From assembly GCA_002404115.1 (NCBI GenBank), contig DHJB01000060.1, positions 9,915 to 21,103 on the forward strand: a DNA stretch of 11,189 bases, given 5' to 3'. Every line of letters starts with the position of its first letter. The stretch's first letter is position 1. Below are positions 8,690-10,288 of the stretch, one piece after another. The position numbers and the translations under genes are program-made. The notes below the pieces were generated by a model. It was not told the origin of the DNA and did no database searches. It was given only the letters and a program-made list of their open reading frames with translations. Source of the stretch: Microbacteriaceae bacterium UBA4731. Its GTDB lineage: Bacteria; Actinomycetota; Actinomycetes; Actinomycetales; Microbacteriaceae.

Positions 8690-10288
8690 CTATCGGGCGT
8701 GCGCGGCGTACTGGGCGCGGATGACGGGGCGGAAGTCGGGCGCCGGCTGCGCCGCAAGGGCCAGCGGCCACGCCGGGCGCTGGCCGGTGAGCGCCCAGGC
8801 CGCCTGCGCTGCCGCGCCGTCGGCCACGTACTCTCCGGGCGCCGGCACCACGATCGGGCAATCAAAGACCTGCGCCGCGATTGCCTGCACCGCCGGGTTC
8901 TGCGCGGCACCGCCGATCAGCAGGATGCGCTCGGCCTCGACGCCCTGCCCCCGCACGGCGTCGAGGCCGTCGGCGAGCCCGCAGAGCAGCCCCTCGAACG
9001 CTGCGCGCGCGAGGTTCGGCCGCGTCGTCGAGGCCAGGGTCATCCCGAACATGGATGCCGTGGCATCCGGCAGGTTCGGCGTGCGCTCGCCCTCGAAGTA
9101 GGGCTGCAGCACCAGGCCGCCCGCGCCGGGTTCTGCCTCAAGGGCGAGCCGGCCGAGTTCGTCGTGGTCGACGCCGAGGAGCCCGGCGATCGAGTCGAGC
9201 ACGCGGGCGGCGTTGAGCGTCGCGACGAGGGGCAGGAAGAGGCCGCTCGCGTCGGCGAACCCGGCGACCGTGCCCGTGGCATCCGCCGCCGGCTCGTCGG
9301 TGACGGCGAAGACGGTGCCGCTCGTTCCGATGGACACGACCACGTCGCCCGCTCCGGCGCCGAGGCCGAGCGCGGCGCCCGCGTTGTCGCCCGCGCCCGC
9401 GCCGACGACGATCCCCGCCGTCGCCGCGCCCGTCGCCGCCGCTCCCGCGTGCATCGTCGGCCCCGCTCCCGCGTCCATCGTCGGCCCCGCCGGCCCCGCC
9501 GAATTCGACGGAGATATTGCGACGGATGCGGCATTTTCGCCCGTTTCAGAACCCGAACCGGCAGAATCTCCGTCGAATTCGGCAGCCGGGGCGCCACCCG
9601 GGGTCCCGGCCGGGAGACGGCGCGGCGGGCCGGCGGTCTCACCGGGGCCGAGCACGCGGGGCAGGATGGCGCGGTGCCCGAGCGCGCGCTCGAACAGGTC
9701 GAGGTCGTATTCGCCGGTTGCGGGCGACCAGTAGCCGGTGCCGCTCGCGTCGGAGCGGTCGGTGGTCAGTTCGGTGAGCACGGGACCGCGGGCACTCGCG
9801 TCGGCTGGGCCGAACCCGCGCAGCCGCCAGCTGAGCCAGTCGTGGGGGAGCGCGACAGCGGCCACGCGCGCGGCATTGGCCGGCTCATTGTCCCGCAGCC
9901 AGCGCAGTTTCGTCACGGTGAACGAGGCGACCGGCACGGAGCCGGCCCGGCGCGCGTACTCGCCGGCGCCGACCTCGGCCACGAGCGCGGCCGCTGCCGG
10001 GGCGCTGCGGGTGTCGTTCCAGAGCAGGGCGGGGCGGATGACCCGGCCCTCGTCGTCGAGCACGACCATGCCGTGCTGCTGCGCCCCGACCGCGATCGCG
10101 GCGACATCGGCCAGGCCGCCTGCCTCCGCGAGAGCGGACTGCAGGGCCATCCACCACGCCTCCGGGTCGACCTCGGTTCCGACCGGGTGGGACGCGCGGC
10201 CGGTGCGCACGAGGGCCCCGGTCGCGGCATCGCGAATAACGACCTTGCAACTCTGGGTCGACGAGTCGACCCCGGCAATCAATGTCAT
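8690..10288 (-). CDS. xylB: Xylulokinase with an in-frame palindrome insertion
   Basis: A 532-residue FGGY-family sugar kinase that phosphorylates D-xylulose with ATP, the second step of xylose use. Motifs are GVDSSTQSCK (6-15), QQHGMV (70-75), WNDTR (90-94), HDWLSWRL (149-156), DRSDASGTGYW (177-187), GAGDNAGAALG (298-308) with the expected catalytic base Asp301, GTSGTVFA (321-328) and GGAAQNP (459-465). The ATG at 10288 has GGAGA 9 nt upstream; a longer in-frame start at 10393 would cover a non-coding hairpin. Relatives usually have about 460-500 residues. The excess lies at residues about 221-291, between the N- and C-terminal halves and just before Asp301. There a Gly/Ala/Pro/Ser-rich stretch contains a family B palindrome (residues 236-264) and an eight-residue tandem duplication (268-283). 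The frame stays open, so activity is possible but uncertain. It lies 298 nt downstream of xylA. Confidence 0.93.
   Translation of the reverse strand: MTLIAGVDSSTQSCKVVIRDAATGALVRTGRASHPVGTEVDPEAWWMALQSALAEAGGLADVAAIAVGAQQHGMVVLDDEGRVIRPALLWNDTRSAPAAAALVAEVGAGEYARRAGSVPVASFTVTKLRWLRDNEPANAARVAAVALPHDWLSWRLRGFGPADASARGPVLTELTTDRSDASGTGYWSPATGEYDLDLFERALGHRAILPRVLGPGETAGPPRRLPAGTPGGAPAAEFDGDSAGSGSETGENAASVAISPSNSAGPAGPTMDAGAGPTMHAGAAATGAATAGIVVGAGAGDNAGAALGLGAGAGDVVVSIGTSGTVFAVTDEPAADATGTVAGFADASGLFLPLVATLNAARVLDSIAGLLGVDHDELGRLALEAEPGAGGLVLQPYFEGERTPNLPDATASMFGMTLASTTRPNLARAAFEGLLCGLADGLDAVRGQGVEAERILLIGGAAQNPAVQAIAAQVFDCPIVVPAPGEYVADGAAAQAAWALTGQRPAWPLALAAQPAPDFRPVIRAQYAAHAR
9441..9488 (-). 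repeat. 24-nt tandem duplication inside xylB
   Basis: Two adjacent 24-nt units (9441-9464 and 9465-9488) differ at a single base. On the coding strand they give GPTMDAGA and GPTMHAGA. A partial third GGCCCCGC follows before the family B palindrome. The repeat is a multiple of three, so it keeps the xylB frame. It probably arose by slippage or from the insertion event next to it. Confidence 0.85.
9498..9583. repeat. Palindromic element, family B, copy inside xylB
   Basis: An 86-nt element with 23-nt arms (9498-9520 and 9561-9583) that match at 21 positions as an inverted repeat. The outer part CCGAATTCGACGGAGAT is shared with the arms of the intergenic copy at 7065-7145, while the central parts differ. 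Read on the minus strand it adds residues 236-264 of xylulokinase (AEFDGD to PSNSA) with no stop codon. This is a repeat carried as coding sequence. Confidence 0.88.

What the first reader, a model, noticed from the sequence alone, without database searches (positions are those of the whole stretch)
9498..9583. Mobile-looking palindrome carried as coding sequence inside xylulokinase
The family B element seen between genes at 7065-7145 recurs inside xylB, where both arms and the centre are translated (residues 236-264) without a stop or frameshift. The site is the segment between the two halves of the kinase, just before the catalytic Asp301, where relatives have only a short loop. Rickettsia palindromic elements are the known precedent for palindromes that insert in frame into genes; I know of no such case described for this type of actinobacterium. 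It suggests a small element that spreads into genes and becomes a peptide insert.
Basis: partly seen in the sequence, partly recalled or inferred. Interest (0 to 1): 0.82.

Follow-up and report, generated by a model that had tools for sequence, protein, structure and literature searches.

The report
Palindromic DNA element inside bacterial genes
A roughly 90-letter palindromic DNA element scattered between genes of glacier bacteria (Cryobacterium) also sits, in reading frame, inside two unrelated enzyme genes, and its two ends stay almost unchanged while its middle changes freely, which suggests that something binds the DNA itself.

Summary
Window 9498-9583 is a palindromic element translated inside xylB (insert FDGD-x17-SPSN, residues 238-262); a second copy lies between genes at 7065-7145. 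The window's own genome is not held, so relatives were used.

It is a dispersed family: 20 of 57 genomes of the C. shii genus carry the exact arm pair (1 to 118 copies; five genomes with 50 or more). Outer span is nearly fixed (mostly 73 or 74 nt). The centre lacks a conserved sequence, but its A/T content alternates every 10-10.5 bp. Inner variable positions of the two arms do not covary, so they look like two DNA half-sites rather than a selected hairpin. In sampled C. shii DNA most copies lie behind genes. Two sites are filled in one genome and empty in three relatives.

The xylB insert is old: other Cryobacterium and Glaciibacter superstes share it, and decayed and half-deleted forms exist. 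A second gene (DUF7059 methyltransferase) carries the same 25-residue insert. Arms keep rare codons; among seven copies picked for near-intact arms, arms differ 1%, centres 52%, silent sites 33%.

It works like Rickettsia palindromic elements and other MITEs that fuse in frame. My searches found no report for this group. The binding or mobilising protein is unknown.

The parts
9498..9583 (-). In-gene element of family B: 18-nt exact inverted arms around a 50-nt centre; outer span of the 12-nt arm cores is 74 nt
   Evidence: A/T phasing of the centre p 0.0065
9504..9515 (+). Arm core TTCGACGGAGAT (the second arm in the direction of xylB, read there as codons TCT CCG TCG AAT)
   Evidence: unchanged in the four other xylB copies
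9566..9577 (-). Inverted arm core (the first arm in the direction of xylB: codons TTC GAC GGA GAT)
9503..9577 (-). Coding part of the insert: 25-residue peptide FDGD-x17-SPSN, residues 238-262 of XylB
9416..9640 (-). Hypervariable linker of XylB (residues 217-291) between FGGY_N and FGGY_C, in which the element sits
   Evidence: coil of very low confidence in a weak model
8693..10288 (-). xylB, xylulokinase, 532 aa without stop (FGGY_N 4-220, FGGY_C 317-499)
7065..7145 (.). Intergenic copy of family B (arm-core span 73 nt), between a GNAT acetyltransferase gene on - and a glycerate kinase gene on +

Best explanation
Family B is a small, non-autonomous, dispersed palindromic DNA element of the Cryobacterium group. 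It has two inverted arms (extended consensus GAACSAATTCGACGGAGATTYTG) at a nearly fixed distance and a centre of about 49 bp with helically phased A/T tracts. Shown: dispersal, near-fixed span, phasing, constraint on the arms at the DNA level, location mostly behind genes in C. shii, sites filled in one genome and empty in three relatives, and in-frame carriage in xylB and in a DUF7059 methyltransferase gene. Inferred: a protein reads each arm as a half-site, and the phased centre lets the short DNA bend or wrap so that both arms meet in one complex, either a transposase synapse or a wrapping protein. In xylB an old insertion landed in the linker between the two kinase domains. It was tolerated because the arms hold no stop codon, the length kept the frame, and the peptide is polar and probably disordered. 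Its arms are still held by whatever acts on the DNA, so this stretch of coding sequence seems to obey a DNA-level constraint more than the kinase.
For: Exact arm pair in 20 of 57 genomes of the genus, up to 118 copies, backward control 0. Span in 40 C. shii copies, with spans of 54 to 98 nt allowed: 73 (34), 74 (4), 82 (1), 83 (1). A/T power at period 10 is 1.67 against 0.24 for shuffled centres, 49 elements; 90% of 81 centres of 73-type have p<0.05 alone. Arm positions 13-17: left-right equality as expected by chance, 57 elements. Centres in C. shii are related beyond a column-shuffle null: 31 of 561 pairs share 28 or more of 41 letters, null mean 0.6, maximum 4 in 200. One intergenic site in six species: 40 arm letters identical in all six, centres 22.8 of 43 identical on average against 17.3 for unrelated copies. 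xylB, 21 pairs of 7 copies: arms differ 1.2%, centres 52%, third positions of shared residues 33%. Codons GGA, GAT, TCT and AAT of the arms are kept in 5 of 5 copies; outside the linker, aa-invariant columns holding GGA are uniform in 0 of 17, AAT 0 of 4, TCT 0 of 1, GAT 1 of 2. Second gene: L161, L222, L224, L226. Two sites filled in G311 and empty in G003, G005 and G347.
Against: No binding protein or transposase was identified. No target-site duplication could be read at the two empty sites, and their flanks are partly replaced. The 7 xylB copies compared were chosen for near-intact arms, which inflates arm conservation; L005/L127, L121 and L133 show eroded arms. Outer arm positions -5, -4, -3 and -1 agree left to right somewhat more than expected (0.65, 0.74, 0.98, 0.91 against 0.53, 0.65, 0.92, 0.79), which pairing or lineage differences could cause. 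Spans of 68, 72 and 75 nt also occur, so the span is not strictly set to whole turns. Four of 11 in-gene copies have no significant phasing (L122, L129, L002, L226). At the six-species site only 5 of 15 centre pairs exceed the 95th percentile of unrelated pairs, so repeated insertion there is not excluded. The window's own genome could not be searched.
Confidence: 0.6

Rival explanations
1. BIME-like chromosomal site: the element is a resident wrapping site (for DNA gyrase or a nucleoid protein) kept behind genes by selection, not a selfish element.
For: Convergent 18, tandem 16, divergent 2 of 40 elements, against 31 convergent, 82 tandem and 39 divergent gaps of 90 nt or more (convergent against divergent p 3.6e-5); in tandem pairs 14 of 16 lie nearer the upstream gene's 3' end. 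The E. coli gyrase motif has 10.75-bp periodic GC in two flanks of 47 bp, and BIME-2 elements are gyrase sites (passages of PMC6379681).
Against: Copy number is patchy: 37 of 57 genomes lack the exact pair, although gyrase is universal (general knowledge). Sequence-specific arms are not part of the gyrase motif in the passages seen. Similar centres recurring in G311 look, by eye, like amplification. The stretches were chosen around listed copies and genes came from my own caller.
Confidence: 0.25
2. RNA hairpin: the element works in RNA as a terminator or 3'-end stabiliser, and the arms are kept so that they can pair.
For: Complementary arm cores and position behind genes; outer arm positions -5 to -1 except -2 agree more than expected.
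Against: Inner variable positions do not covary, and at -2 the two sides differ in 61% of 57 copies. Near-fixed span and 10-bp phasing have no evident use in a hairpin loop. In xylB and the methyltransferase it lies mid-gene. No Rfam family reaches its gathering score in the window.
Confidence: 0.12
3. The peptide FDGD-x17-SPSN is a useful protein module kept by protein-level selection.
For: 25-residue length in 14 of the 15 XylB hits that carry it and in 12 of 80 methyltransferases by a slightly looser pattern.
Against: Rare codons are kept where synonymous change would be free; the 17 middle residues vary widely; 54 of 80 XylB proteins have a short linker; the same DNA occurs mostly outside genes.
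Confidence: 0.08
4. Hotspot: independent insertions hit the same linker in each lineage, so the in-gene copies are many separate events.
For: Insert state is scattered on the XylB tree: 12 changes, at least 5 forced by well-supported branches; methyltransferase 7 changes, 3 forced. Centres of xylB copies from different clades differ at 20-38 of 50 positions.
Against: All xylB copies read as DNA have the 74-nt span and the same frame; eroded forms keep the 25-residue length; stubs of one arm remain in L003/L140 and L118, as expected when an old insert is lost. Within one clade (L122, L129, L002) centres are clearly homologous (2-11 of 50 differ).
Confidence: 0.25

Closest known systems
Rickettsia palindromic elements (RPE)
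   Same: Dispersed palindrome, intergenic and in frame inside unrelated conserved genes, translated as a tolerated insert (passages of PMC2229807 and PMC10969869).
   Different: Phylum, near-fixed 73/74-nt span, phased centre without conserved sequence, and in the C. shii sample mostly between genes. No sequence comparison with RPEs was made.
MITEs with in-frame fusions (ERIC/RU-1, Correia 107-bp)
   Same: Short, terminal inverted repeats, patchy copy number, in-frame fusions (passages of PMC2229807).
   Different: In family B arms, span and phasing are kept while the centre drifts; no target duplication read; no parent transposon known.
REP/BIME elements
   Same: Many copies, palindromic, behind genes; BIME-2 are gyrase sites (passages of PMC6379681).
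   Different: REPs are mostly 20-50 nt (passages of PMC12306157) and linked to RAYT transposases (recalled); family B is longer and no RAYT match was found in 18 genomes.

Membership tests
Rickettsia palindromic elements | Palindromic repeat inserted in frame in unrelated genes and translated | tested here: met
   xylB and DUF7059 methyltransferase; translation itself is inferred from open frame and codon score
Rickettsia palindromic elements | Sequence homology to RPE families | not tested
   No RPE sequence was fetched or compared
MITE | Terminal inverted repeats, short length, no coding capacity of its own | tested here: met
MITE | Target-site duplication at filled versus empty sites | tested here: inconclusive
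   Two filled/empty sites; net gain 89 nt and 109 nt, no clear duplication, flanks partly replaced
MITE | Parent transposon with the same ends | not tested
   No search for a parent was run. In the C. shii stretches the only exact unpaired arms are one copy apparently split by an insertion sequence at two contig ends; genome-wide C. shii has 263 exact 14-nt arms against 118 exact pairs
REP/REPIN with RAYT | RAYT (Y1_Tnp, PF01797) in the genome | tested here: not met
   0 of 18 genomes, 11 of which have arms; the control search rings in 5 of 14 named genomes
BIME/gyrase site | Gyrase binding or cleavage | not testable with these tools
   Only phasing and 3' location were seen
RNA hairpin / intrinsic terminator | Compensatory change between arms | tested here: inconclusive
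   No covariation at positions 13-17 and opposite letters at -2, but positions -5, -4, -3 and -1 agree more than expected; core positions do not vary and say nothing (57 elements)

The most novel reading that the evidence does not exclude
Family B is a DNA architecture defined by two protein half-sites at a set distance plus a spacer that keeps only helical phase, not sequence. It spreads through genomes and, once inside a gene, makes the coding sequence obey a DNA-binding constraint, so that rare codons are kept while the protein linker between them drifts. That would be a new way in which a mobile or structural DNA site shapes protein sequence.
Probability: 0.4. Interest if true: 0.78.

Novelty: new variant of a known kind. 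Interest (0 to 1): 0.6.

Why it matters
It adds an actinobacterial, free-living group to the in-frame palindromic elements named in the reviews seen, with over 100 copies in some genomes. The contrast of frozen arms, free centre and kept helical phase makes a testable prediction about a specific DNA-binding or mobilising protein. It also shows how a hypervariable interdomain linker can arise, and how DNA-level constraint can be mistaken for protein conservation.

Tried and rejected
Hairpin as main reading: disfavoured, not excluded. REP/RAYT membership: no RAYT. Chance: rejected. Viral carrier: 0 exact matches in viral contigs; one plasmid search with the intergenic copy found nothing. Family-wide presence: 2 of 299 Microbacteriaceae genomes drawn, one of them C. 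shii itself. Comparison of window 7065-7145 with Cryobacterium sp. 1639 gave no alignable flanks. Three further sites of C. shii stretch L099 gave an orthologous copy in G337 (two of them) or unclear gaps. Family D (AACTCCTGCAATT arms) has a near-fixed 84-nt span but no 10-bp phasing, so phasing is not a general trait of palindromes here. The AlphaFold model is weak (mean pLDDT 53, 265 of 532 residues under 50) and merely agrees with a disordered linker.

Sampling limits. One search found 110 distinct elements in fetched loci (window not loaded; only listed spans allowed): 73 (80), 74 (27), 82 (1), 83 (2). Of 108 tested, 11 passed a loose threshold; one (L101:6923, 73-nt, score 0.07) I count as intergenic because one search puts it between tandem genes. 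Ten remain (6 xylB, 4 methyltransferase), plus the window's copy found. The loci include xylB loci chosen by homology and 74-nt copies chosen, so this is no genome rate, and the in-gene copies come from two gene families. In C. shii the sampled stretches were chosen around copies that one search had listed. C. shii has in-gene copies outside them: xylB (L006/L120) and C84, whose peptide occurs in methyltransferase P0127.

Full report
What is there. The window comes from a Cryobacterium-like actinobacterium; its XylB is closest to that of C. tagatosivorans among named hits (81%). No whole genome is held for the window, so genome-wide statements concern relatives. The palindrome at 9498-9583 has 18-nt exact arms and is translated as residues 236-264 of xylulokinase; a sister copy lies at 7065-7145 between two divergent genes. 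The match is far above chance.

The element in relatives. The pattern TTCGACGGAGAT-N{48,60}-ATCTCCGTCGAA was searched in 57 genomes of the genus of C. shii (which by this grouping includes Glaciibacter superstes): 20 of 57 have it, with counts 118, 108, 96, 63, 50, 15, 14, 13, 11, 11, 9, 7, 4, 4, 3, 3, 2, 2, 2, 1; the backward control is 0 throughout. In a wider draw 2 of 299 genomes of the family have it, one being C. shii itself. In 366 kb of C. shii, with spans from 54 to 98 nt allowed, 40 copies have outer span 73 (34), 74 (4), 82 (1), 83 (1). Elsewhere a few copies of 68, 72 and 75 nt occur.

Anatomy. Arms extend to GAACSAATTCGACGGAGATTYTG. The centre has little base preference by position but strong A/T alternation with peaks near positions 12, 22, 32, 42, 52 and 62. 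Fourier power at period 10 is 1.67 against 0.24 for shuffled centres (49 elements). Of 81 centres of 73-type, 90% are phased at p<0.05 on their own; of 17 further 74-type copies, 71%; of 11 in-gene copies, 7. At arm positions 13-17 left and right letters agree no more than chance; at -2 they tend to differ; at -5, -4, -3 and -1 they agree somewhat more than expected. On balance this favours two separately read half-sites over a paired stem. The invariant core positions cannot be tested this way.

Descent and mobility. Centres in C. shii are related beyond a column-shuffled null: 31 of 561 pairs with 28 or more of 41 identities, null mean 0.6 and maximum 4. Genome G311 shows, by eye, several copies with similar centres. 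Two sites filled in G311 are empty in G003, G005 and G347 with collinear flanks, net gains 89 nt and 109 nt, both just behind a stop codon; target duplication could not be read. Other copies are old: one intergenic site is filled in six species, with 40 arm letters identical in all six, centres averaging 22.8 of 43 identities (unrelated copies 17.3; 5 of 15 pairs above their 95th percentile), and a left stub in G313.

Place. In C. shii 18 of 40 copies lie between convergent genes, 16 between tandem genes, 2 between divergent genes, 3 overlap a predicted gene end and 1 is at an edge; gaps of 90 nt or more are 31 convergent, 39 divergent and 82 tandem (own gene caller). In tandem pairs 14 of 16 are nearer the upstream gene's 3' end.

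In genes. The XylB linker between FGGY_N and FGGY_C is hypervariable. Of the 80 best XylB hits 14 have F[DE]G[DE]-x17-[ST]PS[NI], 1 has it at another length (P0012), 11 have other long linkers and 54 are short. Degraded states are instructive: erosion at the same length (L121, L127, L133), one-arm stubs (L118, L140/L003) and absence. The state changes 12 times on the tree, at least 5 forced, so losses, gains or both occurred. Seven xylB copies differ on average at 1.2% of arm sites, 52% of centre sites and 33% of third positions of shared residues; they were picked for near-intact arms, which inflates the contrast. Rare codons in the arms are identical in 5 of 5 species, unlike elsewhere in the gene. 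A second gene, a DUF7059/methyltransferase/DUF7782 protein, carries the same 25-residue insert in its own linker (L161, L222, L224, L226); 12 of 80 relatives have it by a slightly looser pattern, with 7 changes on the tree. The 11 coding copies seen as DNA all have span 74 and read FDGD...SPSN (IDGD in L226), while most intergenic copies have span 73; frame filtering is the likely reason (inference).

Mechanism. Shown: dispersal, filled and empty sites, near-fixed span, phasing, arm constraint, position, in-frame carriage. Inferred: a protein reads both arms and the phased centre bends so that they meet. Whether this is a transposition synapse, a gyrase or nucleoid wrapping site, or both, is open. 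The E. coli gyrase motif has 10.75-bp periodic GC in two flanks of 47 bp, and BIME-2 elements are gyrase sites (passages of PMC6379681).

Comparison. Passages of two reviews (PMC2229807, PMC10969869) describe in-frame fusions of RPE, ERIC and Correia elements, so the kind is known. No RAYT match in 18 genomes. Searches for Cryobacterium with palindromic repeats (8 papers), Cryobacterium with inverted repeats and intergenic (0 papers) and REP with Actinobacteria and Microbacteriaceae (2 papers) gave, by titles and abstract starts, no description of this family; none of those papers was opened. Further listings and passages of PMC12306157 named none either. Most subscription journals are not held.

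Noticed in passing
window 10329-10412: Another palindrome (arms AACTCCTGCAATT, span 84 nt) just upstream of xylB; 19 such copies in fetched loci and window, span 84 in 15 of 19, many at the same place before xylB, also in genomes without family B. No 10-bp phasing.
   Followed up: partly
window 5594-5679 and 10482-10567: A further repeated palindrome (TTCCGGTCGAGATTGAC), 77% alike between the two places, with look-alikes in C. shii loci L006, L116 and L117.
   Followed up: no
window 8372-8442: 33-nt inverted repeat (85% complementary) between the convergent glycerate kinase and xylB genes; only microRNA matches below the gathering score in Rfam.
   Followed up: no
L110:8803 to end and L107:1-100: A family-B copy in C. 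shii seems split by an insertion sequence: two contig ends share the terminal sequence GGCTCTCCTGTCGTAACC next to half elements.
   Followed up: no
L235:5042-5115: A different short repeat that matches dozens of places on both strands in G347, G005, G338, G345 and G003; another dispersed family in this group. Its alignment over relatives was unclear.
   Followed up: no
L118 (G322 xylB linker): After the left arm the rest of the element is replaced by a tandem repeat of 9 nt (CAGGACACG) coding QDT repeats.
   Followed up: no
L001:5841-5936 and 7691-7776: In Glaciibacter superstes a different palindrome (TAACTCAGGAGAT arms) lies on both sides of xylB, one copy where Cryobacterium often has the AACTCCTGCAATT family.
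   Followed up: no
P0007 and P0045 (XylB): Two XylB proteins very close on the tree outside the linker carry quite different linkers, one with and one without the FDGD...SPSN insert.
   Followed up: no
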